33,000 nt of DNA from Methanofollis sp. (GTDB lineage: Archaea > Halobacteriota > Methanomicrobia > Methanomicrobiales > Methanofollaceae). Position numbers and translations under genes: made by a program. Numbering within the stretch: the stretch's first letter is position 1; each line of letters begins with the position of its first letter. Shown here piece after piece: positions 14,100 through 31,157 of this stretch. The notes beneath the pieces are model-generated. The model worked only from the letters and a program-made list of their open reading frames with translations, was not told where the DNA came from and did no database searches. The DNA is taken from NCBI RefSeq assembly GCF_028702905.1, contig NZ_JAQVNX010000017.1, forward strand, positions 1-33,000. Direction: 5' to 3'.

Positions 14100-15605
14100 A
14101 TGAAAGACTCTGAGATCTTGATGAATCCCAACGATCTGGTTCGTTTTCTCAAGAAGGATCCGGCGGAGTTTACCAAGGAAGACATCATCCACTTCTGCGA
14201 GGAAAATGCGATCGAGATGGTGAACTTCCGGTACGCCGCGGAGGACGGCCAGCTCAAGACCCTCAACTTCATTATCTCCTCGAAGGAACACCTCGACACC
14301 ATCCTCTCCGACGGCGAGCGTGTCGACGGCAGCAACCTCTTCTCGTTCATCGAGGCCGGAAGCAGCGACCTGTACGCGATCCCCCGCTACCGCACCGCGT
14401 TCATGAACCCCTTCACCGAGGTGCCCACGCTGGAGATCCTCTGCTCCTTCTACGACAACGAGGGCAAGCCCCTGGAGAGCTCCCCCGAGTACGTGCTCCG
14501 CAAGGCGAACGAGGAGTTCACCCGCCAGACCGGTGCCGTCTTCAAGACCCTCGGCGAACTCGAGTACTACGTGATCAGCCCGCGCGAGGACCTCTACCCC
14601 GGCCGCGACCAGAAGGGCTACCACACGGCCGAACCCTTCGCGAAGTTCGAAGACCTGCGGAATGAGGCGATGAAGTTGATCGCCCGCGCCGGCGGCAAGA
14701 TCAAGTACGGCCACTCCGAGGTCGGCTGCTTCTGCAACGAGGACACCTACTACGAGCAGCATGAGATCGAGTTCCTCCCGGTGCCGGTGGAGCAGGCGGT
14801 CGAGCAGATCATCCTGGCGAAGTGGATCCTGCGCATGCTCGGCTACCGCTACGGCGTCGACATCAGCTATGCCCCGAAGATCACCGTCGGCAAGGCGGGC
14901 AGCGGCATGCACTTCCACATGCTCGTCGAGAAGGACGGCAGGAACCTGATGGTCGAGGACGGCAAGCTCAGCTCCATGGCCAGGAAGATGATCGCCGGCA
15001 TCCTCGACGCCGCGGACGCGATCACGGCCTTCGGCAACTGCATCCCGACCTCGTACCTCCGCCTGGTTCCCCACCAGGAAGCCCCGACCTACATCTGCTG
15101 GGGCGACCGCAACCGCTCTGTCGTGGTCCGCGTGCCCCTGGGCTGGACCTGCGGTTCAGATATGACCCGTGACGCCAACCCCTGCGGCTACCACTGCGAC
15201 GCGGCGAGGCCGTCCAAGCAGACGATCGAGTACCGTGTCGCGGACGGCTCCTGCGATCCCTATCTCACCGTCGCCTCCCTGATCCTCGCCTCCCTCCGCG
15301 GCATCACCATGCCCGACGCCCTCAAGCAGGCCGAGGACCTCTATGTCATCGGCAACATCTTCAGGCCCGAGTTCAAGGACCACCTCGCCACCTTCAGGCA
15401 GCTCCCGGCATCCTGCTCTGAGTCGGCCGACGTCCTCGCCGCCAGGCGTGCGATCTTCGAGGAGAACGGCATCTTCCCGGCAGGCATGATCGACAACAGG
15501 ATCCAGACTCTGAAGGCCTTCAACGACAAGGGCCTCAGCGAGAAACTCTACGGCAACACGGAAGCGATCCGCGAGCTCGTCGAGAAGTACATCCACGTCG
15601 CATAA
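14100..15605 (+). CDS. Glutamine synthetase family protein
   Basis: A 501-residue protein of the glutamine synthetase superfamily, which condenses glutamate and ammonia using ATP. The catalytic landmarks are present in divergent form: GELEYYVI (about 152-159, first metal glutamates), GKAGSGMHFHMLVEKDG (about 264-280), TSYLRLVPHQEAPTYICWGDRNRSVVVRVP (about 317-346) and IEYRVADGSCDPYLTVASLILAS (about 378-400). It is longer than classic type I GlnA, and motifs such as RFPDPSCNPY are changed to YRVADGSCDPY. It may therefore be a paralogue acting on another amine or acid and not the main GS. It is single-gene with its own promoter, and its codon use is strongly host-like, suggesting high expression. 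Confidence 0.85.
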   Translation: MKDSEILMNPNDLVRFLKKDPAEFTKEDIIHFCEENAIEMVNFRYAAEDGQLKTLNFIISSKEHLDTILSDGERVDGSNLFSFIEAGSSDLYAIPRYRTAFMNPFTEVPTLEILCSFYDNEGKPLESSPEYVLRKANEEFTRQTGAVFKTLGELEYYVISPREDLYPGRDQKGYHTAEPFAKFEDLRNEAMKLIARAGGKIKYGHSEVGCFCNEDTYYEQHEIEFLPVPVEQAVEQIILAKWILRMLGYRYGVDISYAPKITVGKAGSGMHFHMLVEKDGRNLMVEDGKLSSMARKMIAGILDAADAITAFGNCIPTSYLRLVPHQEAPTYICWGDRNRSVVVRVPLGWTCGSDMTRDANPCGYHCDAARPSKQTIEYRVADGSCDPYLTVASLILASLRGITMPDALKQAEDLYVIGNIFRPEFKDHLATFRQLPASCSESADVLAARRAIFEENGIFPAGMIDNRIQTLKAFNDKGLSEKLYGNTEAIRELVEKYIHVA

Positions 15606-15643: not shown

Positions 15644-15745
15644 GGTGGGTGGAGGTTCTCTTTTTCTCGGGAAAATGAAGTATCTGCGCTGAGCAGCGTA
15701 TGTGTCCTGCCGTTGCTTCTGCATAGCGGCGGTTCTTTTGGCCTC

Positions 15746-16177
15746 CTACCCGGTGCTGGCGTCCTGCTCTTGCAGAGGCGGCCCGCCGCGGGCGTATGTC
15801 GCTGTGTCCTGGCCAATGCCGTTAGCCTCCGAGACACCCACTACCGAGCCGATGACGGCATAGCGCGGGCCGAAGATCTTGGTGAGATGTGACCCCGACG
15901 GCCACCATGTGTGACCCACGGCCGGCCACGTGTCGTTCATGAAGCGGCCTCAGGGGAAACTGCTCTCGATAGCGATGGCAGTGTAGCCGTGCCTCTCCAC
16001 CAGGCGCTGGAAGAGTTTGTTGCGGAGCAGGAGGCTCTCCTCACCGCCTTGGAGCGCCTCTCCGAAGCTGAGCAGTTCGACCGACGGATCGAGGGAGGCG
16101 ATGAGCGTGCCGATGGCGGCGTTGAAGGTTTCGGGTGAGTCGATGGAGAGCGGGATTGCTTCTTGTTGGAACCGCGT
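15746..16177 (-). pseudogene. Erythromycin-esterase family remnant
   Basis: One minus-strand frame reads as two joined pieces of an erythromycin-esterase-like hydrolase. The first piece (about 16177-15953) gives ETFNAAIGTLIASLDPSVEL, then LLSFGEALQGGEESLLLRNK and HGYTAIAIESSFP, the N-terminal active-site region. It then hits TGA at 15950-15952. The same frame resumes with GPRYAVIGSVVGVSEANGIG, which is the C-terminal region of the family. A normal protein is around 400 residues or more, so several hundred residues are missing between the pieces. There is also no start codon after the upstream stop. This is a dead gene with an internal deletion, lying directly beside the AT-rich island. Confidence 0.75.
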
Positions 16178-16441
16178 TTAGAGTGTGGTGTGATCAGGTT
16201 TCATCTCCCGGATTCAGGATGGTAAGACCCTAAAGAAAATTCCTTGCTCTTGTTGAGGTCCCCTCTGATCCTGCGCAGGATCGCAGGTTTTCTGCCCCCA
16301 TGTATCGTCTGCTGGGGATTAACTTGAAGCCTTATCCTTCTTGAAAATCCTCTGATAGGATCCAGAACTGGGAGTGGCACACTATGTAGAAATTGTTAGG
16401 GATAGTTCCTGCAGAGCAGGAAAATTAAATTTTGGAGGATT
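16178..16441. other. Intergenic border of the AT-rich island
   Basis: No gene is seen. The stretch contains the perfect 16-base palindrome GATCCTGCGCAGGATC (16267-16282) and a hairpin near the helicase stop. Base composition shifts here from host-like to AT-rich. Confidence 0.55.
16406..16422 (-). terminator. Hairpin after the helicase operon
   Basis: TTCCTGC and GCAGGAA arms with a three-base loop, about 20 bases past the helicase stop on the minus strand. There is no strong T-run after it, so terminator function is tentative. Confidence 0.4.
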
Positions 16442-19400
16442 CTAATCTCGCAGGAAGTGTTTTATAATCTTATCTGCCTCTTCAAAGGCTTTTGGGAGTG
16501 CATTTTTTACTACTTTATCTGACAAATATATGGTGCTATCTTTCTTCTCTGATAGGAGCCACATAGCAGGATACACCACAAATTGGATTGATTTGTTCGG
16601 TAAAATAACTGACATGCTCCCTTTCTCGGGGGGTAATTGAATCTCAGGATGAGCATCAGCAAGCAAATGTTTGAGTGGGGTGATAATTTCATGTTGCTCA
16701 TCGATGCTCAAGGGTTTTGGGAGGTTGCCATATCTACCCCAGCTCAGGAGATCAAGGGCTGCAAGACGATCCAATTTTTCATGCACTCTCTGGTTCCAGT
16801 AATGTTTGAGACATGAGTGACATGCTGTAGCACACCTTTTGTCGCAGTTCAAGACATTCTGAATACTCTGGAGTAGTGGATCAATCATGCTCCAAAGGCC
16901 AGTGGCGTATCCCGCTCCACTTGATAGACTGTCATAGATGTAAATATCAACAAACGTTTTATCTTCCGTTTCGTGAACTCTGTGACCACCTTTAATGTCT
17001 TTGAAATCAACATCTAGAGTCCGGCTTGCAGCAAGTAAGAAAGCCTCGGTGAGTGTTGTTGCAGCGCTTGATATCCACATTCCGGAGTATTCGGTGTTTA
17101 TTTGGGACTTATCCAGTTCAAACTCAAAGACAATCATATCTGTTGCAAATGTGTGACCAAGATACACATTTACTGGATCATGAATGCACCTTGCACCTTG
17201 GATGGAGTATGGTCGGCCAATATTCTTCAATACTTTTGATTCGGGATCCTCATCACTTTGTTCTGCAACCTCTGCAGCACCGCACTTCTGGCATACATTA
17301 AATCCGTGTCCTTTCACCCCCTTGTTGATGATTCTGATCTTATCAGATCGGACTGCGGCCATTATGTGCTGACACCCAATGTCTTTCATGTCATTGCGGT
17401 CAGGTGTTGCAAAATAGCATGGCTCCTCTGCATATGACTGTTCAATTTCTGCGTGTGCTTCAGGGATTGGCTTTCCGTCTACGGGAGCAAAACCCCATGG
17501 TCGAAGCATCTTCCGTTTCTTCTCTTCTGAAATTGGTTCTCCACAGAATGGGCACACTCCCCCTATTGGATATTTTGTATCAGTCCAGCCACATTCTGGG
17601 TTTGGACATAGATACAAATCGGACAGATAATTCGGATCATCAAAGTACGGTCGTGCTTGATTTTCACGCCTATTGCCTTTTCTGAACTTTGAGTGGAAAC
17701 TGTATATGCCGCCGACTTTGTAGGTTTCTTTGTTTACAACGATTACTTTTCCTGGGGCATATTCACTAATCGCAATGTCAAGAGAACGGTCTGGTCTCTG
17801 GATAATCTTATTTCCAGATCCATCTTCGATGAAGAAACCTACAACATTTTGTGGGAACGAGTAGGTTGGTAGGATTCCCTCAAAATTCAAGTGATCCAGA
17901 AGACTGGTTTTTTGTTCTTTTTCAGCTCTGCCCTCATACAGGTCGCGATTTTTGAACACATTCCCTCGGATTCCCTCTAATTCAGTTGTGAGCCCCAATA
18001 AAAATTTTTGATAAGAATTTTCATCTCCTTTTTTTTCAGAAAGAATAGTTTCCTCCAGTTCTGGTTTGAACTGGAATGTTCTCAAAAACTCTGTGAATTC
18101 ATTATAGTAACTATCGAAGAATGATAATACTGGACATTCATACAAATCTGTCCCTTTTTCATTCAAAAACTCACTCAGGATGAGCAGATTCATATGGCGC
18201 TGAAGGAGTGTACTATTGTTTACATCTATCCATGGACTACTGGCATCGCCTGATATAATTTTCTCAGGGTGATCGAAGTACCACCCGTCATGGGGACCAT
18301 TCTGGGCATAGGTGACGATTGTTGATATTGTCGTCCCGCGTCTTCCTGCACGTCCTGCTCTCTGCTGGTAGTTCTCGCGCATTGGTGGAACATTACGGAG
18401 ACTGATAGCTGTCAGAGAACCGATATCAATACCTACCTCCATCGTTGTTGTACAACTCAAGACATCGATTGGGAGCTCATCGTCCAAGACTAGATTTTGG
18501 AACCGCATCTCGTAATTTTCTGTCGTGGACCATATGTTGTCCCGCTGATCTTTGTAGGAGAGTTGTGCTGTGTGTTCTTCTGTGTTGATAGTATGTATCG
18601 GATTTTCAGAATCTCTCTTAATTGCATCTAGAACCGGGTCTCTCCAGAACTTGTACCGTTCAAGATCCCCTTCGCTCATCTCATAGACGTCTGATGAACC
18701 ACAATGTGCACATTTCCCAAGCAAAGTATATGGGAAAATATTGGAACATGTCCTGCAACGGTACCACTTATGTTTGTCATTAAATTTTAATGCGATTTTA
18801 TCCAGAATAAGGAAATATCTGTTTTCTTCCTCACCACTTCCCCGACCAAGGAATGTTTCGGAAAGTGTGAAAATGATCCAATTAATCTGTTCCTGAGTGT
18901 ATATTTGCCCTAGTATTTTCTTGAATTTGGATGGTATTTTCTGTAGGTCTTTCTCCTCTACACCAAACCTATCGTATTTACGAAGAGCGATATTGAACCG
19001 TATTTGATTTGAAATCTGGTTTCCAATAGCAAAAGAGTTCGTACAATGATAGTAAGCCCAAGCGGTGAAGAGGGAAATAAACTCTTCTTCAGACATCTTG
19101 ATATCATGTTCCTCGAATGATTCAAGGCACTCTGCAATGTCATATTTGTCCGAGGGTTCAATCCAACCAAGTCCGAGATCTGTCAAAGACCTGAAAGGGG
19201 AGCAGAGATTTTTCAGGAGTTGTTCTGAAAATAGTCCGGGTTTATTCTTGTAATCGCTAATGATTCTATCATATCTTACCGATGTATTTCGCCTTTCTGC
19301 TTTTTCAATAGTACGTTTGATTTTTTCCAAATCTTCGTTAAATCGGGTCTTATCCCCTCCATAGAACAGACGGAGGTGATTTTTGTCTGCAATCTCCAAA

Positions 19401-21757
19401 AATGCAGGATAGAGCATATCAAGTGTTACAACACTCCCTGTGGTTTCAGTCCATTGCTGTAAATGGTTGGCCGCCAGAACTAAAACCGCTCTTGCAGCCT
19501 GATCATCTGCTGTCCTGGTCATATCTTTAGCAAGTACCGCGGCTCTTTGTCTGCTGTCTGAGAATACAAGGACTTTCCTCCCGGCATTTGGCTGTTGCTT
19601 AAGTTTTTCTTCATCAAATATTGCAGGTGGTTGGACTGACAATTGTGACGAAACAATGTTGTAAAATGGCTCGTTTCCTTTCGTAGAAAAATCAGAAAAG
19701 GAGTAGTAACTCAGTGGCTTTCCACATTTTGGGCATTGGCTAAATGTTAGTTGTTCTGGCTTTCCTTTTACTGGCTTAAGAGAGTAGCAAACCTCTAAGA
19801 ATCCATCCTCTCCAGCACGAATGTTGTTAAAATGGATGAAACCGGTCTTTGCATCAAGCCACCCGTAACGGATATCTCCCTTTTTTCTATGATAATTCTG
19901 CGGTATGATGTAGAGATGTACTTCCTTCAACTCTTTCCCAAATATTTCTCCGTGAGTACGCCAGAGATAGTTCTTTTCCTCGGAATCCTCCGCATTGAGC
20001 AAGTATCCTTTGAGAAACAGGGCTCCACATCTTCTATCGTTGATCAACTCATAGATTTTCCCACCGCAGTGAGGGCAGGTGTCCCACTCACTGTCTGAGT
20101 AGATCTTACCGAGAGTGATACCGTCACCAGCATGTTTTTCTGGGCAGTTCGGATTTGTACATGCGTACAATCCCTGTAGACCACGGAAAAACATGTGAAG
20201 TCTTGCAGGAAAGAGAACTTGCCTGTCTTTTTTAGCAAGTGGTAGTAGTGATAGAAGAACTTGTGTTGCCGAAAGTGCAGTTTTGGTATCATCATGTGGG
20301 AACGCAATCTCTGCAAGTTCGGTGATCCCGGTAGCGTTTCCTGCTGTTTGATTTATTATCCGTTGTATGGGACTGTATTTTGGCAATGTTTCAAATAACC
20401 ATGTTTCTAGTTCCTTGATAGTATCATATGGGGGTCTTGTCCCATCAATTTCTTGGAAAAATCTGTGGATTGCTAGTACTTTTGTTGTATCATCAAGCTG
20501 GAAATCATCTAGAGGGAAATTACTTATCTTATTTGCAGAAAAATCAACGGGATTTAGGAGATCGATCTTTTTATTTGTTCCAATTATTATCGAGAATGTA
20601 TCCTTCTCGGATGAAGTGATCTCCCTTAGATATTTTTTTAGTTCGATTTTCTTTTCCTCGGTATCAACAGGAATACTTGCGCTGGTGAGAATAAACCGTA
20701 CTTTATCGCGCGTAATTCCTAACTTGTACATTAGCCGGCGAATGAGGAGAGCCACCTCTCCCCCCGCTGATCCACGATACATATGTGCTTCATCAATGAC
20801 CACTAGGAGTTTGTTCTCTGGAGATTCATTTAACCAGTCCCTTGTGTTTGACCAGAATGGCTGTTCGATCTGCCGAATTAGCATGTATTGGAGCATTGAG
20901 TAATTTGTGACGAGAATGTCAGGGCAATAATCCTGCATTTCCTTACGGGTGATTAATTCCGCATCCCGCAGAGCAGGTTGATGAATCCCCTTTTTTAGAT
21001 TTGCAGTATAGGTTTTCAGATCATATTTTGAGGGGTACTTCCCCAGCGATTTGAGCTCCGCGATCAACTCGGGACTACGGTCGATCAGGTCGCGTTCCAG
21101 CGTTTTTGCCAGTTCTGTATTCTTTTCTTTTACAGGTTCACCAGGATATGGTGTCCTACCCGTGTACATTCCGAATTGAGGAATACGGGTGTGTGTGCCA
21201 CCAGTATACTCCGTAAAAAGTGTGTAATACTCTCCACCATAGTCCCCGATCATTTTCCGCAAACGACCAATCTGATCTGCGACCAGTGCATTCATTGGGT
21301 AGAGCAGCAACGCCCTAATACCTCTTTTATTCCACGAATCTGGACATGTTTTTGCTTCATTCGCAAGATTTGCGACAAGAGGCCACATGAAACACTCGGT
21401 CTTTCCAGAACCTGTGCCTGTTGTCACCAGAATGTCGCTCCCTTGGTAAAACTCTTCAAGCGCCTTAACCTGGTGACTATAAGGATCTTTGAAAACCCCT
21501 AAATTTTTGGTACTCATTTGAAAAAGGAAATCCTTGATATTTTGGGGGATATCAGCATTAACCAATCCATCTTTTGATATCTGGTATGTTTGATTTGATT
21601 CGATGTAGGGATCTTTGTAAATTGAGTCTTTTTCATCTAAAAGATCTTTTGATGCGCTCAAAAGAAGATCGTTCTCACCAAAGTATTGTGCCCGGATGTA
21701 ATCCTTCAGTTTTGCAGCAAGTTCATGGTGTATATGTTGAACACTATATTCAGCCAT
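16442..21757 (-). CDS. Giant DEAH helicase with DUF1998 domain (DruE-like)
   Basis: A 1771-residue superfamily 2 helicase. Lobe 1 has a Q-motif-like SHQVKALEEF (94-103), Walker A TGTGSGKT (113-120), DEAH (322-325) and TSAS (358-361). Lobe 2 begins with RKVLVFSDSRQRAA near residue 730 and continues with DVLSCTTTMEVGIDIGSL and YQQRAGRAGRRG (about 1095-1145), so both lobes carry long insertions. Several zinc-type cysteine clusters are visible: CTNPNC/CPHCGG, CPKCGK, CRTC/CAHCG, CPNPEC/CPFCGE and CQKCG. The C-terminus (about 1570-1680) is a DUF1998/MrfA-like module with CDKRCATACHSCLKHYWNQRVHEKLDRLAALDLL. Size and layout resemble DruE of Druantia; DISARM splits these functions between DrmA and DrmB. 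It is the last gene of the operon. GGTGAT precedes its ATG, which overlaps the previous gene by 8 bp. Confidence 0.93.
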   Translation of the reverse strand: MAEYSVQHIHHELAAKLKDYIRAQYFGENDLLLSASKDLLDEKDSIYKDPYIESNQTYQISKDGLVNADIPQNIKDFLFQMSTKNLGVFKDPYSHQVKALEEFYQGSDILVTTGTGSGKTECFMWPLVANLANEAKTCPDSWNKRGIRALLLYPMNALVADQIGRLRKMIGDYGGEYYTLFTEYTGGTHTRIPQFGMYTGRTPYPGEPVKEKNTELAKTLERDLIDRSPELIAELKSLGKYPSKYDLKTYTANLKKGIHQPALRDAELITRKEMQDYCPDILVTNYSMLQYMLIRQIEQPFWSNTRDWLNESPENKLLVVIDEAHMYRGSAGGEVALLIRRLMYKLGITRDKVRFILTSASIPVDTEEKKIELKKYLREITSSEKDTFSIIIGTNKKIDLLNPVDFSANKISNFPLDDFQLDDTTKVLAIHRFFQEIDGTRPPYDTIKELETWLFETLPKYSPIQRIINQTAGNATGITELAEIAFPHDDTKTALSATQVLLSLLPLAKKDRQVLFPARLHMFFRGLQGLYACTNPNCPEKHAGDGITLGKIYSDSEWDTCPHCGGKIYELINDRRCGALFLKGYLLNAEDSEEKNYLWRTHGEIFGKELKEVHLYIIPQNYHRKKGDIRYGWLDAKTGFIHFNNIRAGEDGFLEVCYSLKPVKGKPEQLTFSQCPKCGKPLSYYSFSDFSTKGNEPFYNIVSSQLSVQPPAIFDEEKLKQQPNAGRKVLVFSDSRQRAAVLAKDMTRTADDQAARAVLVLAANHLQQWTETTGSVVTLDMLYPAFLEIADKNHLRLFYGGDKTRFNEDLEKIKRTIEKAERRNTSVRYDRIISDYKNKPGLFSEQLLKNLCSPFRSLTDLGLGWIEPSDKYDIAECLESFEEHDIKMSEEEFISLFTAWAYYHCTNSFAIGNQISNQIRFNIALRKYDRFGVEEKDLQKIPSKFKKILGQIYTQEQINWIIFTLSETFLGRGSGEEENRYFLILDKIALKFNDKHKWYRCRTCSNIFPYTLLGKCAHCGSSDVYEMSEGDLERYKFWRDPVLDAIKRDSENPIHTINTEEHTAQLSYKDQRDNIWSTTENYEMRFQNLVLDDELPIDVLSCTTTMEVGIDIGSLTAISLRNVPPMRENYQQRAGRAGRRGTTISTIVTYAQNGPHDGWYFDHPEKIISGDASSPWIDVNNSTLLQRHMNLLILSEFLNEKGTDLYECPVLSFFDSYYNEFTEFLRTFQFKPELEETILSEKKGDENSYQKFLLGLTTELEGIRGNVFKNRDLYEGRAEKEQKTSLLDHLNFEGILPTYSFPQNVVGFFIEDGSGNKIIQRPDRSLDIAISEYAPGKVIVVNKETYKVGGIYSFHSKFRKGNRRENQARPYFDDPNYLSDLYLCPNPECGWTDTKYPIGGVCPFCGEPISEEKKRKMLRPWGFAPVDGKPIPEAHAEIEQSYAEEPCYFATPDRNDMKDIGCQHIMAAVRSDKIRIINKGVKGHGFNVCQKCGAAEVAEQSDEDPESKVLKNIGRPYSIQGARCIHDPVNVYLGHTFATDMIVFEFELDKSQINTEYSGMWISSAATTLTEAFLLAASRTLDVDFKDIKGGHRVHETEDKTFVDIYIYDSLSSGAGYATGLWSMIDPLLQSIQNVLNCDKRCATACHSCLKHYWNQRVHEKLDRLAALDLLSWGRYGNLPKPLSIDEQHEIITPLKHLLADAHPEIQLPPEKGSMSVILPNKSIQFVVYPAMWLLSEKKDSTIYLSDKVVKNALPKAFEEADKIIKHFLRD

Positions 21758-22790
21758 TCTGTATCACCCGAATGTTTAGATTCTCCAGAATTTTTGAAAC
21801 GATTGGGAGGAATACAGGCGATGTGATAAATTCTGTTCTGTCCAGAATGCTTCGAACCGGCCAAGCTATCATGTAGAACAACATTTCCTCTCTCCTAGGA
21901 AGAGTAGAGTGGAGCCTGATTTTGATTGCGTCTTTGTAGGTCGTTATTGTGGCCTGTTCCTGGTTATCATTCAAATGTCGAAGACCATACATGAATCTAC
22001 GAACATCGTGTGTTTTTATGATGTAATCCGGAAATGCGAGGGTATATACCTTGTCATTTTCTTTTTTAGCAATTCCGTAGTCGACAAGGTTATTTCGATA
22101 CACCGTTAGTTCCGACGGATGATCCAGTGATTGTTTCCAGGAATCAGAGAAGATTTGTTTTGAAAGCGGGTCAAAATATTTTCGAGCATCAGATATGATG
22201 GGGTTTAGTGTATATTTCCCATTAGCATATCTACTGTACTCAAGAACGGTGTCTTTTGCATCAATTTGTGGTATCAAAAAAAGTTCTTCCAGCGAGTACG
22301 CATTTTTTTCGGAAATCCTATTGACATACCATCCAAGCCCATGTGGCTCTCCATCTTTTCCGAATGATGTTCCGCGGAGTAAAAACAAGTCCTCGGCAAT
22401 TCTTGCGAATTTATCTGGGGGTAATTGAATTGTGTTGTCCGGTCCAGATACAAGAAATCCAGCGTATTCCAGTCTCTCTTGGATCTTTTTTGCTGGCTGA
22501 AAATTCGGTTTATCCTCAGGATAAAACCATTTCTTCACTTCTGGATAGAGATCTAAATAGGCAGAAAGGATGATATTGCATTTTCTGGTCACATGATGTT
22601 TTGTGTACAGTGTGTCTTTTGTGTCCTGATATTCCTCTCTGTCCTCAATACATCTGTCTAAAACTGCTGTTTTTATCCATTCTGAAATGGCGGAATAAAG
22701 TACCCGGGCAATATAGGCGTTTTTGTCTTCACAGGAAAAGCGAGATATCCCCAGTCCCTGTGCTATAATCTCATGGGGATATTGGATCAT
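21750..22790 (-). CDS. Operon protein 3, unknown function
   Basis: A 346-residue protein that I do not recognise. It is soluble, charged and likely helical, with no obvious nuclease, zinc or NTP-binding motif. The C-terminal stretch (YKDAIKIRLHSTLPRREEMLFYMIAWPVRSILD) contains conserved-looking aromatic and basic residues. An in-frame TTG at 22808 would lengthen it by six residues. The GGAGGAG at 22806-22800 sits nine bases before ATG 22790, so the shorter start, four bases after the upstream stop, is preferred. It overlaps the helicase start by 8 bp. Tight coupling to the helicase suggests a dedicated partner subunit. Its size and place are reminiscent of DruD in Druantia type I, but I cannot show homology. 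Confidence 0.85.
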   Translation of the reverse strand: MIQYPHEIIAQGLGISRFSCEDKNAYIARVLYSAISEWIKTAVLDRCIEDREEYQDTKDTLYTKHHVTRKCNIILSAYLDLYPEVKKWFYPEDKPNFQPAKKIQERLEYAGFLVSGPDNTIQLPPDKFARIAEDLFLLRGTSFGKDGEPHGLGWYVNRISEKNAYSLEELFLIPQIDAKDTVLEYSRYANGKYTLNPIISDARKYFDPLSKQIFSDSWKQSLDHPSELTVYRNNLVDYGIAKKENDKVYTLAFPDYIIKTHDVRRFMYGLRHLNDNQEQATITTYKDAIKIRLHSTLPRREEMLFYMIAWPVRSILDRTEFITSPVFLPIVSKILENLNIRVIQNG

Positions 22791-22794
22791 AGAG

Positions 22795-25305
22795 TTATTC
22801 TCCTCCAAGGAGTCCCACTATGATCTCTTTGAGGTCTTTTCTGCTAAGATTCTCTAGTCTTTGGTTTAGTTCTTTTGTAGTCCCTAACAATTTGCAATAT
22901 GATGCAAGCTCCAGAAGAAGTACCCCCTCCACGTTTTCTTCATCTTTTTCGTCATCTGTTTCGATAAAATCAGAGAGTATTGCAGTTCTAGTCAGATTGT
23001 ACCCATTTGTTGTATTCAGTCCTTTTGAAATCTTAACTGCTCTCTGATACAAATCCTGAAATCCCTTTGAACTTCTTTCGATAGTTACTGTACAAATCCC
23101 AGGATACAAGGCATTGGCTGCAATGGAGGTTATCATATCTTCTGAATTGATGAGGACCATATATCCTAGGACACTTGGCGGAAGTATTCGCATGTTTTCT
23201 GAGAAATCAAGTGAAAACAGGATGTATTTTTCGGGGTTTTCATCAAGAATGTCCTTTGCGAGATGCGTATAACAATATTCGTCAATGGAACCGATGACAT
23301 TTTGAAGAAGAACAATATTTCCTCTTGTCTTTTTCACAGTGTTTAACAGTGAAGAATAGTTGTTGTAACCAGTTGGAACAGAAATAACCTCGGGTGTTTG
23401 TGAATGGAGTGTAACTGAAATGGCATTAGCCATGAGATTTGCCTTACATCCTGTAAGGAGGAGAGGAGTTCTTGTCACATATGCTCCAGCAATGAGCTTA
23501 GCTAAGCTCTCAGCATATTTATTGTCAGTTCCAATGTTCTGAAGATTGTTCTTCAGATCATCGATTAGATCTTTTATATTGTCACTCTCGATCGATTCTG
23601 ATCCGTGACAATCTTTTGCCGGCTGCACTAAAGGATCTGAATTTGGCGAGGAGGCAACACTTATCTTTTCGTAATCCCCTGATGGAATTACCCCTTTAAA
23701 CAGCGCCAAATCGCCGAGGAAGTTCCCTGGATTGTGCTGGATGCTCCTAAGTTTCTGCTCACAATAGGTTTTTAATTGACCATTTATTTTTTCTAAATCT
23801 TGCTTCTTTTGTTCCAGTTGCGAGAGTTCTTCTTGAATCTGTTTTTTTTCTGAAATATCTTTCTCAAGTTGTTTCTTTGATATCTCTAATGATTCTATGT
23901 CCTTCTGGATTTTGCGAGTTTCCTCACGGAGTGACTCAAGATCTTTCTGGATGGCGTTCTGTTGATCAACTCTAAACTGTTCGCCCTCTTTGGTGATCGC
24001 CTGCATTTGTTCTTTTTTAAATGCAACAATTTCATCATCAGCAATCTTTTTTTGATTTTCTTTGTATCTGTGGAGTTCCTGTTTTATGTGGTATTCTTGT
24101 TCTGATCTGAGTCTTTCCCCTTCTGATTCAACTGTTTTCTTGAGCGATTTTAATGCATCCGTTTCAGCTGTTTTTTCCGCATTTATTACAAGTATTTCAC
24201 CATTGATTTCATCGATTATGTTCTTTAGGTCGCTAATTTCTCTCTCTAAAGCCTCTTTCTGCTCAAACAATCCTTGATTTGCAATATGTTGTATTTTATC
24301 AATGTATTTTTCGTTGATCTTTGGAACGTTTTCAATAACCCCCCTTACGAACTCCTCAACTTTATCATCGGTGTTGAGATATGCACTTATTATGTCAGTT
24401 TGTAACTCAAGCCACTGCTTATTCTCTGGAGATAGTGTAAATACAGGCCGTAATTTCGGATTTGAGAGGGCTTCGGTGACAATTTTGTTCACTAATTTCT
24501 TATCACCCTCTGAGTAATTCAGGCGAGAGGCGATGCGGTAAAAATATCCTGCAAAGCGAGTTGAATCAGTATGAAGAATCAGGGTATCTAACTTGTCCTG
24601 TTGACCGAATTTCATCTTTTTGTAGATGAACCTTCGAGTCAGGTCTGAACCGTTATCTGGGATTGAATTTTTGTATAATGGATCAAAAGAATCAATAACG
24701 TCTGTTCTTTCGATTCTATATCGATCCAATGACGACCTTCTATCGGTTACAAAAAGTAACTCATTATACCGCAGACTGGATGTTGCTTTCGTTATCTCAA
24801 CACAGAAGTAATGTTCTTCATCGCAATCATAGACTACGAGGAGATTTTCTGAAAATGTGTCGGGGACAACGATACCATTTTCCAATATCTGTGCGAGTGC
24901 ATCATCAGAATCCCCCACCCGTCTCATATGTTCTAGGGATTCTGGCGAAGTTTCAGGATTCTGCAAGAAGATGACTTCGTAATAATTATATTTGCAAGGG
25001 GGTTTAGGATGAAGTGAATAGGGTGCTGCGTCATAAACCTCCGCATTGGCGCTTTCTTTCCACATCCAGATGCCTACATTGTCATGCCCCCATTGATCAG
25101 AGTTTTCCTCCAATTTAATCGGTATGAGCATGTGTCCGTTGTCTGGATTGGTGTAGATCGTACCTATGGTATTTACTCGACCTTTTTTACCCCACTCTTT
25201 TGTGGAAATGTCTGCGATCCTCAAGACTTTGAAGTCATGGTCGCCAAACTTCACTGGAATCCCGATACAGCAACGTACATTGAAATCTTTTTTTGGGTTT
25301 GCCAT
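22795..25305 (-). CDS. Operon protein 2: coiled-coil with degenerate AAA-like domain
   Basis: An 836-residue protein. The N-terminal half (1-330) is a globular region of unknown fold. A long coiled coil spans about 340-540, rich in E/K/Q heptads. The C-terminal third (about 590-800) reads like a AAA+ module without its catalytic residues. LLLTGCKANLMANAIS (about 612-627) sits where a P-loop would be but lacks GK[S/T]. GNIVLLQNVIGSIDEYCY (about 660-677) is Walker B-like, and KYILFSLDFSENMRILPPSVLGYMVLI resembles a McrB-type sensor/arginine-finger region. It may be a structural or DNA-recognition partner of the helicase. GGAGGT nine bases before the ATG supports the start, which shares one base with the upstream stop. 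Confidence 0.9.
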   Translation of the reverse strand: MANPKKDFNVRCCIGIPVKFGDHDFKVLRIADISTKEWGKKGRVNTIGTIYTNPDNGHMLIPIKLEENSDQWGHDNVGIWMWKESANAEVYDAAPYSLHPKPPCKYNYYEVIFLQNPETSPESLEHMRRVGDSDDALAQILENGIVVPDTFSENLLVVYDCDEEHYFCVEITKATSSLRYNELLFVTDRRSSLDRYRIERTDVIDSFDPLYKNSIPDNGSDLTRRFIYKKMKFGQQDKLDTLILHTDSTRFAGYFYRIASRLNYSEGDKKLVNKIVTEALSNPKLRPVFTLSPENKQWLELQTDIISAYLNTDDKVEEFVRGVIENVPKINEKYIDKIQHIANQGLFEQKEALEREISDLKNIIDEINGEILVINAEKTAETDALKSLKKTVESEGERLRSEQEYHIKQELHRYKENQKKIADDEIVAFKKEQMQAITKEGEQFRVDQQNAIQKDLESLREETRKIQKDIESLEISKKQLEKDISEKKQIQEELSQLEQKKQDLEKINGQLKTYCEQKLRSIQHNPGNFLGDLALFKGVIPSGDYEKISVASSPNSDPLVQPAKDCHGSESIESDNIKDLIDDLKNNLQNIGTDNKYAESLAKLIAGAYVTRTPLLLTGCKANLMANAISVTLHSQTPEVISVPTGYNNYSSLLNTVKKTRGNIVLLQNVIGSIDEYCYTHLAKDILDENPEKYILFSLDFSENMRILPPSVLGYMVLINSEDMITSIAANALYPGICTVTIERSSKGFQDLYQRAVKISKGLNTTNGYNLTRTAILSDFIETDDEKDEENVEGVLLLELASYCKLLGTTKELNQRLENLSRKDLKEIIVGLLGGE

Positions 25306-26903
25306 TACTTTTCAACCTCCGGATAGAATTCAGAAATGAGATGGTCGTACGCCTTCTGTGGTATTTTTCCAGATCTTAATGTCTGGCTGAGATAACTACT
25401 GACTTTAGGATACTTTTCAAGATGGCCCAGAATATATTTCACTTTCACGGGGGTCGATATAAACGTACCTCCCATTAGAATGAGTTCCGGATACGTTTCT
25501 TCGTCTTTCTTTACTGAGTATCTTCCCTTTGGCTGGATGGGTTTTGGAATGCTTACGTGATGTATCGCGTCCAGTCCGTGACGTACGCAAATATTATCTC
25601 CTTTGGATAAGTTTAGAAATGCAAGAATAGCCTGTTCATTCCAGTAAACACTTTTTAGTTGTTTTTCTGAGTAATGATAAATGTCACATTTACAGTCTGA
25701 TTTGAAGGACAAGTTTGCTCTATCCTTGAGGGAAAAGGAGTCTCCATTTTCAAGTGGTTTTTTTGCGTAATCAAGTGTTATTTCTGGAATGTAGTAATGA
25801 AATATTTCTTCTGGATATTCGCATGTGGGGTGGGCCTCATATGATCCATCAGAGGATTTGACGTGCGTTGGACCCCTGACAGAGTGACATAACAACCATC
25901 CCGCTTTATTAGGTATTTTTTGGATTAGTCTGCGAGATTGTCCATCCGTATCCTGATAATAGGATGTGTCTGTTTGTGCCTGATTGAGGACAGCCGTTGG
26001 TTTGCTGTAAATTTGCCTCTTTCCAACCTGCACATGAGGAGGCCAGAGGGGAATTAGTGGGGGATGCCACTCGACAAGCGTGACCCCTAAGTTGTCTGCA
26101 AATTCTATGGCCTCTTCGGTGACTTTGGTAAACTGCACCCGGTAGACCATCCATTTTGATTCGAAGCCATATGAATCTCCCTCTAATTCCCCTAATGGCT
26201 CGTATTCGAGAAATTCTTCAGTGTCATCCGGTATTCCAAAGGCAGTTGCAAAATAGTAGTATTTGTCTGTGTTTATCTCTCCGTTGTCGGATATACAACG
26301 AGCATAATTTTTACTGTATCTAAACAGTGCCCCCTCTTCTGGAAGTCCTGATAGATCCTCCCCCCAGATTTTAATTATGTCGTGGCCGACTGGTGATTCA
26401 CTGTATTCGAGAGAGTAATAATCATATATCCACTTTAACTGGAGGTAAGTTGTTTCTCCTGGAATTAATTGATTAGAGAGGATTCTGTTCTCTTTAAGTT
26501 CTGCATTATTTGGATTAATGATCCGTACTATGAGTTTTTCATTTCTGGCGGCTACAACAGTCTTCTCTTCCAATGGAGGAAAACCAAGAAAAAGCCCGAA
26601 TTTTCCACCCATCTTCAAAATATAGATCCGTTTTGGATGTTGCCTTAATTTGCGTTCCTCTTGTTGCCTCTGATATTGAACCGCATATACACTATCTGAA
26701 TAGTTGGGGCAGGTGTAATTTTTTGGATTATTGGGGCAGTGTCTAAAATAGGTTCTTTCCTCTCCACTTGCTAATATTACTGGTTCTCCGCACGCAGGGC
26801 AAAATAAAAGCCTGCAATTGGATAAATGGTGGTTATTTGCAAAATTTTTGGCGTAGACTAACTCTTCATGTCCAGAATGTCTCTTCCATATTGCATAATC
26901 CAC
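25305..26903 (-). CDS. Operon protein 1: CoiA-like zinc module
   Basis: A 532-residue protein, first in the operon. Near the N-terminus, LLFCPACGEPVILASGEERTYFRH (32-55) followed by C56 and C65 resembles the zinc module at the start of competence CoiA-like nucleases (CPxCG...HFxH). I see no convincing downstream endonuclease motif, so it may use the module only for binding. The remaining residues form an unrecognised, beta-rich-looking body, with a C-terminal helical part (ILGHLEKYPKVSSYLSQTL). The start is GTG 26903, with GAAGG about nine bases upstream and AT-rich promoter elements near 26945-26966. The stop shares one base with the next gene's ATG. Confidence 0.88.
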   Translation of the reverse strand: MDYAIWKRHSGHEELVYAKNFANNHHLSNCRLLFCPACGEPVILASGEERTYFRHCPNNPKNYTCPNYSDSVYAVQYQRQQEERKLRQHPKRIYILKMGGKFGLFLGFPPLEEKTVVAARNEKLIVRIINPNNAELKENRILSNQLIPGETTYLQLKWIYDYYSLEYSESPVGHDIIKIWGEDLSGLPEEGALFRYSKNYARCISDNGEINTDKYYYFATAFGIPDDTEEFLEYEPLGELEGDSYGFESKWMVYRVQFTKVTEEAIEFADNLGVTLVEWHPPLIPLWPPHVQVGKRQIYSKPTAVLNQAQTDTSYYQDTDGQSRRLIQKIPNKAGWLLCHSVRGPTHVKSSDGSYEAHPTCEYPEEIFHYYIPEITLDYAKKPLENGDSFSLKDRANLSFKSDCKCDIYHYSEKQLKSVYWNEQAILAFLNLSKGDNICVRHGLDAIHHVSIPKPIQPKGRYSVKKDEETYPELILMGGTFISTPVKVKYILGHLEKYPKVSSYLSQTLRSGKIPQKAYDHLISEFYPEVEK

Positions 26904-26942
26904 TGAAATTCGCCTTCAAGAACGATGTATTTCTTCGGCCAA

Positions 26943-26966
26943 GATAATATCATCGAATTAAATTTC
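26943..26966 (-). promoter_or_regulatory. Candidate promoter of the four-gene operon
   Basis: Two AT boxes on the minus strand (AAATTTAATT at 26966-26957 and GATATTATC near 26951-26943) precede GTG 26903 at distances that suit an archaeal TATA element. No other internal promoter is obvious, which fits a single transcript of about 10.5 kb. Confidence 0.4.
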
Positions 26967-27339
26967 ATGCCGCTCTTTTGTCTCATCATATGAATAGAGT
27001 TGTCGAGTTCTTGCCATACTCAAAAGAGTGCGTTTTTTGTGGCTCATATCGTGAGTGTCTAGAACGCGTACCCTTCCTCCTTCGGTTTTAAAGTGCATGA
27101 ACAGATGGTTAACTGCTTGGACCGGAGAAGATGTCCTACAAAAATTGCGAAGTTAAGATAATGTGAATTATAATGCTGCGCAGGAGAAAATTTCCTTTAT
27201 ATTCTCTTCTATAGTGTATTGGATCCTGCACAGATCCTGATCCAATCGTTGATGATCTACAGACACGCACCGTCAGTTACCGTATTACCTGGTGCTATCA
27301 GAGATGACAGCGCTCCCTCCTCCCCCTGGATAGATCCCC
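26967..27339. other. Island right border, no confident gene
   Basis: An AT-rich intergenic stretch that returns to host-like composition near 27300. It contains an eight-base inverted repeat ATTGGATC/GATCCAAT (27218-27225 and 27239-27246) and a ten-base match, CTGCGCAGGA (27176-27185), to the palindrome on the far side of the island. A 33-codon frame at 26990-27091 is too short to accept. Confidence 0.5.
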
Positions 27340-27780
27340 CTACTCCTCCCCGATATCCTCGTTCCACAGATCTGGATTCGCGGCAATGAAATCGGTCATC
27401 AGGCGCACGCACTCCTCGTCGTCCAGGACGACCACGTCTACACCCCGACTTCGGAGATACTCCTCCGGTCCCTGGAAGGTCCGGTTTTCGCCGATCACGA
27501 CCCTGGGTATTTTGTAGAGGAGGACCGTCCCGCTGCACATGTCGCAGGGGGAAAGAGTCGAGTACAGCACCGCCCGGCGGTACTCCTCCGGCTTGAGGCG
27601 GCCGGCATTCTCCAGGCAGTCCATCTCGGCGTGTAAAATGGCGCTGCCCTTCTGCACCCTCCGGTTGTGTCCCCGGCCGACGATTGTGCCGTCGATCACC
27701 AGCACCGAGCCGATGGGGATCCCGCCCTCGGCACGTCCCTGTCTGGCCTCTTCGATGGCGGCCTGCATGAATTTGTCCAT
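27340..27780 (-). CDS. Cytosine deaminase, yeast FCY1 type
   Basis: A 146-residue zinc deaminase of the CDA fold that converts cytosine to uracil in pyrimidine salvage. GGIPIGSVLV, RGHNRRVQKGSAILHAEMDCLEN (HAE zinc/catalytic motif) and YSTLSPCDMCSG (PCxxC zinc ligands) are in order. The later VVIGENRTFQGPEEYLRSRGVDVVVLDDEECVRLM and the ending NPDLWNEDIGE closely follow Saccharomyces Fcy1, which is distinct from the amidohydrolase CodA of E. coli. A longer frame exists upstream (to 27873), but MDKFMQAAIEEAR at 27780 is the natural start. It diverges from the secreted protein gene at 27927. It is a single gene with no linked permease. Confidence 0.92.
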   Translation of the reverse strand: MDKFMQAAIEEARQGRAEGGIPIGSVLVIDGTIVGRGHNRRVQKGSAILHAEMDCLENAGRLKPEEYRRAVLYSTLSPCDMCSGTVLLYKIPRVVIGENRTFQGPEEYLRSRGVDVVVLDDEECVRLMTDFIAANPDLWNEDIGEE

Positions 27781-27871
27781 TGAAACGACACCCGGATAGA
27801 GAAAGTGCTTGACGGCCCATGAACATTCCGGTCGCCGAAACTGCCGGGGTCGAGCGGTCGGGCAGGGAAGC

Positions 27872-27887
27872 AACCAAAACTATTTCT
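27872..27887 (+). promoter_or_regulatory. Conserved promoter element, secreted paralogue 1
   Basis: AACCAAAACTATTTCT, identical in the upstream region of the second paralogue and at the same distance (about 40 bases) before the start codon. It is BRE/TATA-like. The surrounding bases are also partly conserved. Confidence 0.55.
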
Positions 27888-27926
27888 CACCTGGATAGTA
27901 TTCCAACCACAAAAGGGGGGAAATCT

Positions 27927-29399
27927 GTGAGACGGTATATTCTATTGGCATGTCTCTGTGTCATGCTGGCCGGGCATGGCCTTGCACAGACAGGAGAAAC
28001 AGGTGACGTGGATGCTTTCCGGCAGATACTGGAACAGGACAACTTCAGCGTGCAGGAAGGCGGGATCGGGCATTTCGATCTCATCAAATTGTATGACGCA
28101 GGAGCGCTGCCTTCTGCATATGGAAACAATCCCGCGACAAAGTATCTGGCATATTTCGTTCCGCCGGCACCCGGGGGTACGATCGACGAACAGATAGCAG
28201 AGATAACGAAAACGCTTGGAATGAGCGGGAACACATCTGCATTCTGGAATCTCGGTCCCGACGAAGCCGTTATCTTCGTAGGACAAACGCCGCCGGAGTG
28301 CAGGTACTTCGGGTACGATAATTATCTCATGAGCAGGACGTATGGCAACGAGACCAGGTGGATCTTTGCCAACATGGGCGATTCGCTGAACAACCAGATC
28401 ATCAAGACGGAGGGGTCGCCTGGAGACCCGTACAACCAGACGACGATAGTCGTCGCCACGGCTGACAGGGGCATCGACGAGCGCATCCGTGCTGCCGCAC
28501 GTTCGGCGGGATATTCGGACGAGATGATGAACACCCAGGTGTTTCCGTCGTCCATCCTGAATATGGGCCTCGACAACACCTCCGATACGTTCGCCATATT
28601 TATCCGCCCGTCCCTCTTCACCGACAAGCAGGTAGGCGACGAGTACATCGACAACACGTCTGCGACTATCCTCCGCGTGACGCCGAAAAACACGACCCAA
28701 CTCGACCCGTATGAGTCTCCGGATATGCGGGTCAAGGGAACCGGGAAGACGGAGCTTGACCTTACGGACGATCTCAACGACCTCAGGAACGCGATTCTCG
28801 AGAAGTACAGCAACCTGAGCGCCACGGAGCTTCCGACGGCTCCGGGGTTCCCGCAAGGGATTGACGCTATCCAGCGGGGGATCGATGCCGTAGGCCCGAG
28901 CAACGATGCAACATATTTATGGAGCGCAAACCAGGCTGTCAATTCGCCGACGCCGCCCTTCTTCGACACCACGCAGTACTACGACTTCCTGCGAAACCCG
29001 CCGCTCACTCTCGGGAACGATACGAATGAATTCATCATTGTCTACGGGGTCAACCACGTAGCCACGGGCAAGGCGACGTACTCGAGCTTCACTCTCAATG
29101 GAGCGGATGTGTGGAATGGCGTCGGATCGATCACCGACGCGGACTTCAGCGGAACTGCTGAAGAGTATCTCCCCGACAATCCCAACGCGAAATACCTGTA
29201 CGTCTACAAGATCGCGAGGGACTGCGAGGGTGACCCGCACTGCTTCGAGCTTCCCTCCGGTATAGGAAGTTACGGCATCGAGCCCGACCAGCCGATCTTC
29301 ATTCTCTGGAGGAGCTACCTGGAGAGTGCTACGAAAACAGCCCCGTCCTACAACGAGATCGTGTACGACAGGGCCATAAAGTTCGAGCCGGCGGGTTAG
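27927..29399 (+). CDS. Secreted protein of unknown function, paralogue 1
   Basis: A 490-residue exported protein. The signal peptide is VRRYILLACLCVMLAGHGLA, with likely cleavage before QTGETGDVDAF. The mature part has no membrane segment, no recognised domain and several N-x-S/T sequons. Motifs shared with the downstream copy include PPECRYFGYDNYLMSR, NTQVFPSSILNMGLDNTSD, FFDTTQYYDFLRNPP and RDCEGDPHCFELPSGIGSYG. The last contains two cysteines that could pair. An ATG at 27819 would add 36 residues before the signal peptide. GTG 27927 is preferred because GGGGGG lies just before it and because the second copy shows the same arrangement. It ends before a GC hairpin terminator. Confidence 0.85.
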   Translation: MRRYILLACLCVMLAGHGLAQTGETGDVDAFRQILEQDNFSVQEGGIGHFDLIKLYDAGALPSAYGNNPATKYLAYFVPPAPGGTIDEQIAEITKTLGMSGNTSAFWNLGPDEAVIFVGQTPPECRYFGYDNYLMSRTYGNETRWIFANMGDSLNNQIIKTEGSPGDPYNQTTIVVATADRGIDERIRAAARSAGYSDEMMNTQVFPSSILNMGLDNTSDTFAIFIRPSLFTDKQVGDEYIDNTSATILRVTPKNTTQLDPYESPDMRVKGTGKTELDLTDDLNDLRNAILEKYSNLSATELPTAPGFPQGIDAIQRGIDAVGPSNDATYLWSANQAVNSPTPPFFDTTQYYDFLRNPPLTLGNDTNEFIIVYGVNHVATGKATYSSFTLNGADVWNGVGSITDADFSGTAEEYLPDNPNAKYLYVYKIARDCEGDPHCFELPSGIGSYGIEPDQPIFILWRSYLESATKTAPSYNEIVYDRAIKFEPAG

Positions 29400-29578: not shown

Positions 29579-29630
29579 GTTGTTTGCCTGGATGACAGAA
29601 TGCACGAGTAGAGCAATCGGACCGGGATAC

Positions 29631-29646
29631 AACCAAAACTATTTCT
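29631..29646 (+). promoter_or_regulatory. Conserved promoter element, secreted paralogue 2
   Basis: AACCAAAACTATTTCT, exact copy of the element before paralogue 1 and 39 bases before the TTG start. Confidence 0.55.
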
Positions 29647-29684
29647 TGCCCGGATGGTATTCCACCCCCAGAGGGGGGAAGAGT

Positions 29685-31157
29685 TTGAGACGGTACATCC
29701 TCTTTGCAATTCTCGTGGCCATGCTGGTCGGGCACGGCCTTGCACAGACAGGAGAAACGGGTGACGTGGATGCTTTCCGGCAGATACTGGAACAGGACAA
29801 CTTCAGCGTGCAGGAAGGCGAGATCGGCTATTTCGATCTTATTAAACTCTATGATTCAGGGGTGCTGCCTTCCGCATATGGAAACAATCCGGCCACAAAG
29901 TATCTGGCATACTTCGTTCCGCCGGCACCCGGATATCCGGTCGACGAACGGATAGCAGAGATAGCGAAAACACTTGGAATGAGCGGGAACACATCTTCTT
30001 TCTGGAGTCTCGGTCCCGACGAAGCTGTTGTCTTCGTAGGACAGACACCGCCTGAGTGCAGGTACTTCGGGTACGATTATTATCTCATGAGCAGGATCTA
30101 TGGCAACGAGACCAGGTGGATCTTTTCCAACATCGCCGATTCGCTGAACAATCAGGTCATCAACACGACCGGAGGGTCGGGAGATCCGTACAACCAGACG
30201 ACGATTACCGTCGCTACGGCCGACAGGGGCATTGACGAGCGTATCCGTGCCGCCGCCAGATCGGCGGGATATTCGGACGACATGATGAACACCCAGGTGT
30301 TTCCGTCGTCCATACTGAATATGGGCCTCGACAACACCTCCGATACGTTCGGCATATTTATCCGCCCGGCCCTCTTCACCGACAAGGAGGCAGGCGCCGA
30401 GTACATCAACAATACCCCGGCGACCGTCTTCCGCGTGACGCCGAAAAACACGATCGAACTCGACCCGTACGAGTCTCCGGATCTGCGGGTCAGGGGAACA
30501 GGGAAGACGGAGCTTGACCTTACGGACGATCTCGAAGATCTCAGGGCCGCGATTCTTGAGAAGCACAACAACCTGAGCGCCACGGAGCTTCCGACGAGTA
30601 TCGGATTCCCGATGGGGAATGATGCTATCCAGCGGGGAATCGATGGTGTCGGCCCCAGCAACGATGCAGCGTATCTCTGGAGCGCGAACCAGACTGTCAA
30701 CTCGCCGACGCCGCCCTTCTTCGACACCACGCAGTACTACGACTTCCTGCGAAACCCGCCGATCACCCTCGGGAACGATAAGAACGAATTCATCATCGTC
30801 TACGGGGTCAACCACGTAGCCACGGGCAAGGCGACGTACTCGAGTTTCTCCTTATATGGGGCTGATGTGTGGAATGGCGTCGGATCGATCACCGACGCGG
30901 ACTTCAGCGGAACTGCCGAGGAGTACCTCCCTGACAATCCCAACGCGAAGTACCTGTACGTCTACACGATCGCGAGGGACTGCGAGGGTGACCCGCACTG
31001 CTTCGAGCTCCCCTCCGGTATAGGAAGTTACGGTATCGAGCCTGACCAGCCGCTCTTCATTATCTGGAGGAGTTACCTGGAGGGTGCTACGAGTACCGGG
31101 CCGTCCTACAACGAGATGGTGTACGACAGGGCGATAAAGTTCGAACCCACGGGTTAG
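29685..31157 (+). CDS. Secreted protein of unknown function, paralogue 2
   Basis: A 490-residue exported protein, exactly the same length as the upstream copy and nearly the same throughout, so the pair arose by a recent tandem duplication. The signal peptide is LRRYILFAILVAMLVGHGLA, then QTGETGDVDAFRQILEQ. Differences cluster in short patches, for example GYPVDERIAEIAKT against GGTIDEQIAEITKT, and in residues around 250-285. I read the start as TTG 29685 with GAGGGGGG eight to fifteen bases upstream, matching the GTG of copy 1. The in-frame ATG at 29580 would add 35 residues with no resemblance to a signal peptide. The function is unknown; a surface or adhesion role is only a guess. Confidence 0.85.
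   Translation: MRRYILFAILVAMLVGHGLAQTGETGDVDAFRQILEQDNFSVQEGEIGYFDLIKLYDSGVLPSAYGNNPATKYLAYFVPPAPGYPVDERIAEIAKTLGMSGNTSSFWSLGPDEAVVFVGQTPPECRYFGYDYYLMSRIYGNETRWIFSNIADSLNNQVINTTGGSGDPYNQTTITVATADRGIDERIRAAARSAGYSDDMMNTQVFPSSILNMGLDNTSDTFGIFIRPALFTDKEAGAEYINNTPATVFRVTPKNTIELDPYESPDLRVRGTGKTELDLTDDLEDLRAAILEKHNNLSATELPTSIGFPMGNDAIQRGIDGVGPSNDAAYLWSANQTVNSPTPPFFDTTQYYDFLRNPPITLGNDKNEFIIVYGVNHVATGKATYSSFSLYGADVWNGVGSITDADFSGTAEEYLPDNPNAKYLYVYTIARDCEGDPHCFELPSGIGSYGIEPDQPLFIIWRSYLEGATSTGPSYNEMVYDRAIKFEPTG

What the first reader, a model, noticed from the sequence alone, without database searches (positions are those of the whole stretch)
16442..26903. Four-gene AT-rich operon with a DruE-like giant helicase: candidate divergent or new defence system
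Seen: four minus-strand genes (532, 836, 346 and 1771 aa) that overlap or abut by -8 to +4 bases, each with its own ribosome site, in DNA much more AT-rich than both flanks. Known: very large DEAH helicases with a C-terminal DUF1998 module are the hallmark DruE of Druantia and, in split form, DrmA/DrmB of DISARM. Inference: this is an anti-invader system. It lacks a DUF4338 DruA, DruH, a methyltransferase or a PLD protein, so it does not fit the types I can name. The three upstream proteins are unrecognised. The order (about 530, 830, 350, then helicase) loosely recalls druB-C-D-E without druA.
Basis: partly seen in the sequence, partly recalled or inferred. Interest (0 to 1): 0.88.

Follow-up and report, generated by a model that had tools for sequence, protein, structure and literature searches.

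The report
Druantia defence operon lacking druA
A methane-making archaeon carries a four-gene anti-virus operon that is a version of the known Druantia type I system but lacks its first gene, druA, and the same stripped-down version is widespread in gut Clostridia and other bacteria, often wired to restriction enzymes.

Summary
Four intact, overlapping minus-strand genes (16442-26903; 532, 836, 346 and 1771 aa) lie in 41% GC DNA between 63% and 56% GC flanks, in a genome most likely of the genus Methanofollis. The helicase is a full-length type I DruE (PADLOC DruE1, 1954 bits). The three "unrecognised" genes are divergent druB, druC and druD, shown by profile-profile matches to a canonical plasmid-borne druABCDE. 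So this is Druantia type I in order B-C-D-E, without druA. The absence of druA is not local decay. In DruE trees the druA-less operons form one clade (support 100) beside druA-bearing type I systems. A Pfam DruA search found none in 59 of 59 genomes of the clade and found it in 5 of 5 positive controls. The clade spans methanogens and several bacterial phyla. The operon fills a site that is empty in three congeners and is under purifying selection. New here: DruC ends in a dead AAA+ domain, no nuclease is recognisable in any subunit, and about 14 bacterial loci carry a cytosine methyltransferase and/or type II restriction enzyme directly upstream of druB. Best reading: a DruA-independent Druantia variant; defence inferred, mechanism untested.

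The parts
25305..26903 (-). druB-like gene (532 aa, P0004): N-terminal zinc motif CxxC...H...C as in DruB/CoiA_N, then beta-rich domains and a helical C-terminus
   Evidence: Zn residues C35, C38, H55, C65 invariant in 55 homologues. hhalign of the DruB profile against druA-type DruB, E=3.6e-13. Canonical DruB carries CoiA_N. AF2 pLDDT 84.
22795..25305 (-). druC-like gene (836 aa, P0003): N-terminal domain, long coiled coil (about residues 345-525), C-terminal AAA+ fold with a degenerate Walker A
   Evidence: AF2 of residues 560-836 pLDDT 92, pTM 0.92. Foldseek: MoxR-type ATPase 2r44 E=2e-4, RavA TMq 0.47. Same region in P. putida DruC, hhalign E=3.2e-6. 85 of 86 DruC lack GxxxxGK[ST].
21750..22790 (-). 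druD-like gene (346 aa from the ATG; the listed ORF reaches 22808)
   Evidence: PADLOC DruD1 PDLC00008, 104 bits over the whole length. hhalign against druA-type DruD, E=1.7e-8.
16442..21757 (-). druE (1771 aa): SF2 helicase of the YprA family, Walker A GTGSGKT 114-120, DEAH 322-325, motif VI QRAGRAGR 1132-1139, seven CxxC motifs, MZB/DUF1998 at 1570-1650, no nuclease signature in the tail
   Evidence: PADLOC DruE1 1954 bits, residues 2-1765. Pfam DEAD, Helicase_C, MZB. Motifs. Tail conservation. Trees.
15670..27291 (.). Accessory segment carrying the operon, between a glutamine-synthetase-like gene and a cytidine-deaminase-like gene
   Evidence: The same flanks lie 1.05 kb (G010), 0.92 kb (G001) and 0.46 kb (G008) apart without the operon.

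Best explanation
It is a druBCDE operon: a horizontally moved anti-virus/anti-plasmid system of the Druantia type I lineage that works without DruA. Shown: homology of all four subunits to DruB, DruC, DruD and DruE1; intact helicase motifs; a conserved zinc site in DruB; an AAA+ fold in DruC with a lost nucleotide-binding loop; no nuclease signature found; no druA found in the genome. Inferred: DruB (zinc and beta-rich domains) and DruC (coiled coil plus dead AAA+ scaffold), with DruD, form the recognition and loading complex that senses an infection-related DNA structure or protein. That complex places DruE on the invading DNA. DruE then translocates and unwinds with ATP, blocking circularisation or replication and exposing strands to host nucleases, rather than cutting the DNA itself. 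In some bacteria a linked type II restriction-modification pair may supply self-marking and DNA ends. My confidence: identity about 0.95; defence function about 0.85; the load-and-unwind mechanism about 0.4.
For: DruE1 full-length match. Profile links to canonical DruB, DruC and DruD. Strict gene order in 11 archaeal loci and about 80 bacterial loci. One clade, SH-aLRT 100 under LG+G4 and under C20 mixture models. DruA absent in 59 of 59 genomes of the clade and present in 5 of 5 controls. Empty sites in relatives and GC contrast. Purifying selection, dN/dS 0.12-0.37. Neighbouring type I and II restriction genes and GmrSD. Mechanism by analogy: in Druantia III, DruH is the likely sensor and DruE a helicase-nuclease effector (PMC13192584), and DruH-DruE blocks phage DNA circularisation and replication (PMC13316683); the DruE-I tail is a predicted inactive Vsr (PMC12458937), matching the absence of conserved catalytic residues here.
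Against: No phage or plasmid assay exists for this clade in the papers found. DruC and DruD similarity to canonical DruC and DruD is remote. A fold too distant to recognise could hide a nuclease in DruB, DruD or the DruC N-terminus; only two structures were predicted, and DruB gave no useful PDB match. Directionality and loading are not shown.
Confidence: 0.8

Rival explanations
1. A decayed or incomplete Druantia I that lost druA and is no longer functional, or that uses a DruA encoded elsewhere.
For: Type I is described as five genes, DruABCDE (PMC13316683); canonical loci here carry druA.
Against: All four ORFs intact; dN/dS 0.12-0.37; the druA-less state is shared by one clade over several phyla; no PF14236 match in any of 59 genomes while 5 of 5 controls ring. 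The window genome is 96% complete, so a druA in the missing part cannot be wholly excluded for it alone.
Confidence: 0.05
2. A housekeeping MrfA/YprA repair helicase with chance neighbours.
For: Shares the DEAD/Helicase_C/MZB architecture.
Against: MrfA of two genomes lies far outside. The operon is patchy, AT-rich and absent from congeners at the same site, and the neighbours are conserved.
Confidence: 0.01
3. A cargo or stabilisation function of a mobile element (for instance excluding or processing other plasmids or integrative elements) rather than virus defence.
For: Variable insertion sites, transposase or relaxase genes near some loci, plasmid location of relatives.
Against: No replication or integration genes travel with the four genes, and neighbours are often restriction systems.
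Confidence: 0.1
4. A member of another YprA-helicase system (ARMADA, DISARM, Dpd, Druantia II/III/IV, CoCoNuT).
For: Weak hits to DrmA, DpdJ and BrxH through the shared helicase core; C5 methyltransferases near some relatives recall DruM of type II.
Against: DruE1 scores 1954 bits against 646 or less for DruE2, DruE3 and DruE4; no BrxHII, PglX, PLD, DruH, DruF or McrC in the window operon; the partners match DruB, DruC and DruD.
Confidence: 0.03

Closest known systems
Druantia type I (druABCDE; e.g. the P. putida pKF715A locus, L117)
   Same: DruE1 helicase, DruB with CoiA_N-type zinc domain, DruC with coiled coil and the same AAA+-like region, DruD; order B-C-D-E; similar lengths.
   Different: No druA; DruB, DruC and DruD diverged beyond most PADLOC models (DruB1 misses it); separate clade; in part of its bacterial members linked to type II restriction-modification.
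Druantia type III (DruH-DruE)
   Same: Large DruE helicase as the common motor; the mechanism model for DruE is borrowed from it.
   Different: No DruH; DruE here lacks the C-terminal PLD nuclease domains described for type III (PMC12458937).
Druantia type II / type IV CoCoNuT and Druantia IV
   Same: DruE; a coiled-coil plus AAA+ partner is at least analogous to CnuB; a C5 methyltransferase (DruM) in type II resembles the enzyme upstream of druB in some bacterial relatives.
   Different: No DruF, DruG, DruL or DruM in the window; AAA+ domain dead; DruE1, not DruE2 or DruE4.
ARMADA / DISARM
   Same: YprA-family helicase with DUF1998 canopy.
   Different: No BrxHII-like helicase, PglX-like methyltransferase or DrmB/DrmC; far lower scores.

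Membership tests
Druantia type I | DruE of the type I family | tested here: met
   PDLC00013 1954 bits over residues 2-1765; trees.
Druantia type I | druA (DUF4338/PF14236) | tested here: not met
   Absent from the window genome and all 58 other genomes of the clade searched, present in 5 of 5 controls.
Druantia type I | DruB | tested here: met
   hhalign E=3.6e-13 to druA-type DruB; archaeal-only profile already finds DruB of L117 and L118; PADLOC DruB1 itself gives no hit.
Druantia type I | DruC | tested here: met
   PADLOC DruC1 34 bits, coiled-coil biased; outside the coiled coil hhalign E=3.2e-6.
Druantia type I | DruD | tested here: met
   PDLC00008 104 bits full length; hhalign E=1.7e-8.
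Druantia type I | gene order B-C-D-E in one operon | tested here: met
Druantia (any type) | anti-phage activity | not testable with these tools
   Needs a phage challenge.
Druantia type III | DruH beside DruE; nuclease domains on DruE | tested here: not met
   No DruH hit among partners and no PLD domain.
Druantia type II/IV | DruF with DruM/DruG or DruL | tested here: not met
   No such hits in the four proteins apart from coiled-coil noise.
[quoted passage not shown]
MrfA/YprA housekeeping helicase | branches with MrfA, no conserved defence partners | tested here: not met

The most novel reading that the evidence does not exclude
druBCDE is a distinct, DruA-independent Druantia type that is widespread in anaerobes. 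It is built round a nuclease-free helicase and a dead AAA+ scaffold, and in part of the clade it is hard-wired to a type II restriction-modification pair whose cuts and methyl marks feed and guide the helicase.
Probability: 0.4. Interest if true: 0.65.

Novelty: new variant of a known kind. Interest (0 to 1): 0.5.

Why it matters
Type I Druantia is described as a five-gene system and its mechanism is unknown. A large natural lineage that does without druA suggests that DruA is not part of the core machine, so the minimal type I unit to reconstitute is DruBCDE. The absence of any visible nuclease makes a clean test of helicase-only immunity, and the link to restriction-modification in some members suggests where the DNA substrate might come from. 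The profile libraries tried here miss DruB of this lineage, so such operons are probably under-called.

Tried and rejected
Housekeeping MrfA origin: rejected by the tree. DruA elsewhere in the genome or hidden next door: the first own-genome search had no ringing control, so it was repeated with positive controls; the transposase near L035 (PF05598/PF01609) and the upstream genes of other archaeal loci are not DruA. In-frame TGA codons reported in L014-L016 were only the natural stop with the alignment running past it. The PADLOC DruC1 hit taken alone is coiled-coil noise, so the AAA+ region was tested separately. The DruB fold search gave only low-TM immunoglobulin-like matches, so no function was read from it. 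PDB sequence searches for B, C and D found nothing. The first gene-caller run timed out.

Full report
Observation. The four minus-strand genes are real, intact and tightly coupled. Sizes are 532, 836, 346 (from the ATG at 22790; 352 from the listed TTG) and 1771 aa; junctions are overlap 1, gap 4 and overlap 8. Operon GC is 0.411, against 0.629 and 0.558 in the flanks. The window is a whole 33 kb contig of a 2.4 Mb archaeal genome. A same-genus genome (G008) holds this operon on a contig of the same length as a record titled Methanofollis sp., so the window's genus is most likely Methanofollis.

Identity. P0001 is DruE of the type I family: PADLOC DruE1 1954 bits over its whole length, with DruE2, DruE3 and DruE4 at 646 bits or less and DpdJ, DrmA and BrxH far lower. 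Helicase motifs are intact and conserved in 91 or 92 of 92 homologues. P0002 matches DruD1 over its full length, 104 bits. P0003 matches DruC1 mainly through its coiled coil, and P0004 matches no PADLOC model. A canonical druABCDE on the P. putida plasmid pKF715A (L117; DruA 715, DruB 762, DruC 902, DruD 538, DruE 2332 bits) was used as yardstick. Profiles made without that locus find its DruB, DruC and DruD. Profile-profile comparison gives E=3.6e-13 for DruB, 1.7e-8 for DruD and 3.2e-6 for the DruC region outside the coiled coil. DruB of both kinds starts with the same CoiA_N-like zinc motif.

Conservation. The four genes occur in the same order in 11 more archaeal loci, with DruE at 53-93% and DruB at 23-93% identity. 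They also occur in nearly all of about 80 bacterial loci found from the archaeal DruE alignment, mainly Clostridia, but also Thermoguttaceae, Succinivibrionaceae, Prevotella, Paenibacillus and Lactobacillus. That search was seeded with this clade, so it says what the clade looks like, not how common it is among all Druantia.

DruA. PF14236 has no match in 13 archaeal and 46 bacterial genomes of the clade, and it is found in all five controls (the P. putida plasmid and archaeal genomes G076, G188, G232, G285), beside the druB gene of a type I operon in each. One of the 13 archaeal genomes (G320) shows only a contig-edge DruE. In DruE trees all 31 sampled druA-less proteins form one clade with SH-aLRT 100, under a simple model with MrfA as outgroup and under a mixture model without the longest branches. 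The number of druA-bearing type I sequences in these trees is small (four, plus two with DUF4338 in other arrangements), so whether the lineage lost DruA or never had it is left open.

Mobility and selection. The glutamine-synthetase-like gene (14100-15605) and the deaminase-like gene (27340-27873) that flank the insert lie 1.05, 0.92 and 0.46 kb apart, without the operon, in G010, G001 and G008. G002, G006 and G004 carry the operon at this site. G008 carries its own copy on another contig. dN/dS against G002 and G004 is 0.12-0.37 over the four genes. The archaeal DruE sequences are nested among bacterial ones, which indicates transfer between domains.

Context in bacteria. About 14 loci (L043-L050, L052-L056, L094) have, mostly 3-51 bp from druB and on the same strand, a C5-cytosine methyltransferase and a type II restriction enzyme of either the Eco47II or the EcoO109I family; in L047, L052 and L056 only one of the two genes was called. 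L104 has a type I HsdR-like gene 37 bp upstream, and L039 a GmrSD enzyme. This supports a defence role and suggests functional coupling in part of the clade. The window has no such genes next to the operon.

Domains. The DruC C-terminus is predicted with high confidence (pLDDT 92, pTM 0.92) and matches AAA+ proteins of the MoxR/RavA kind best (2r44 E=2e-4; RavA TMq 0.47), but its Walker A loop is lost in 85 of 86 homologues; it is read as a structural remnant. The DruB model is confident but modular, and the PDB matches are weak Ig-like ones without functional meaning. The last 80 residues of DruE keep no catalytic pattern, in line with the inactive Vsr domain predicted for type I DruE (PMC12458937). 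No nuclease family was found in the four proteins.

Mechanism. By analogy with type III, where DruH is the likely sensor and DruE acts on replication intermediates (PMC13192584) and where phage DNA circularisation and replication fail (PMC13316683), I propose that DruB, DruC and DruD recognise an infection cue and load DruE, which unwinds the invading DNA. The steps from recognition to loading, and helicase-only interference, are inference.

Verdict. A known kind of system (Druantia) in an unusual and coherent form: type I without DruA. I do not file it as a plain type I member, because a defining gene was tested and is missing; it is best called a druA-less sister lineage of type I. I found no description of it in the papers searched, but the library lacks most subscription journals, including the original 2018 description of Druantia, so prior notice cannot be excluded.

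Noticed in passing
L043-L050, L052-L056, L094 (upstream of druB, e.g. L043:3089-5202, L044:3453-5391): C5-cytosine methyltransferase plus Eco47II-type or EcoO109I-type restriction enzyme placed directly upstream of druBCDE in about 14 bacterial genomes: a type II R-M and Druantia composite operon.
   Followed up: partly
L104:916-4167: Type I HsdR-like gene ends 37 bp before druB in Clostridium luticellarii.
   Followed up: partly
L165 and L167 (G232, G076): Archaeal druA-bearing loci with A, B, a 353-aa gene in the DruD position and E, but no recognisable DruC.
   Followed up: no
L118:10167-11993; L168:7788-9614; L169:8347-10173: In haloarchaeal druA-bearing loci a 608-aa protein between DruB and DruE has a DruD-like part (PADLOC, residues 355-432 in L118), possibly a DruC-DruD fusion; druA (718-751 aa) is on the opposite strand.
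   Followed up: partly
window 27819-29399 and 29580-31157: Two tandem genes of 526 and 525 aa (88% identical over 1.65 kb of DNA) without Pfam match, also paired in relatives.
   Followed up: no
L103: Two successive druBCD sets, the first with druE, about 1 kb apart, in Anaerobiospirillum succiniciproducens.
   Followed up: no
L097:15394-20616: In a Thermoguttaceae genome druB, druC and druD lie on the strand opposite to druE.
   Followed up: no
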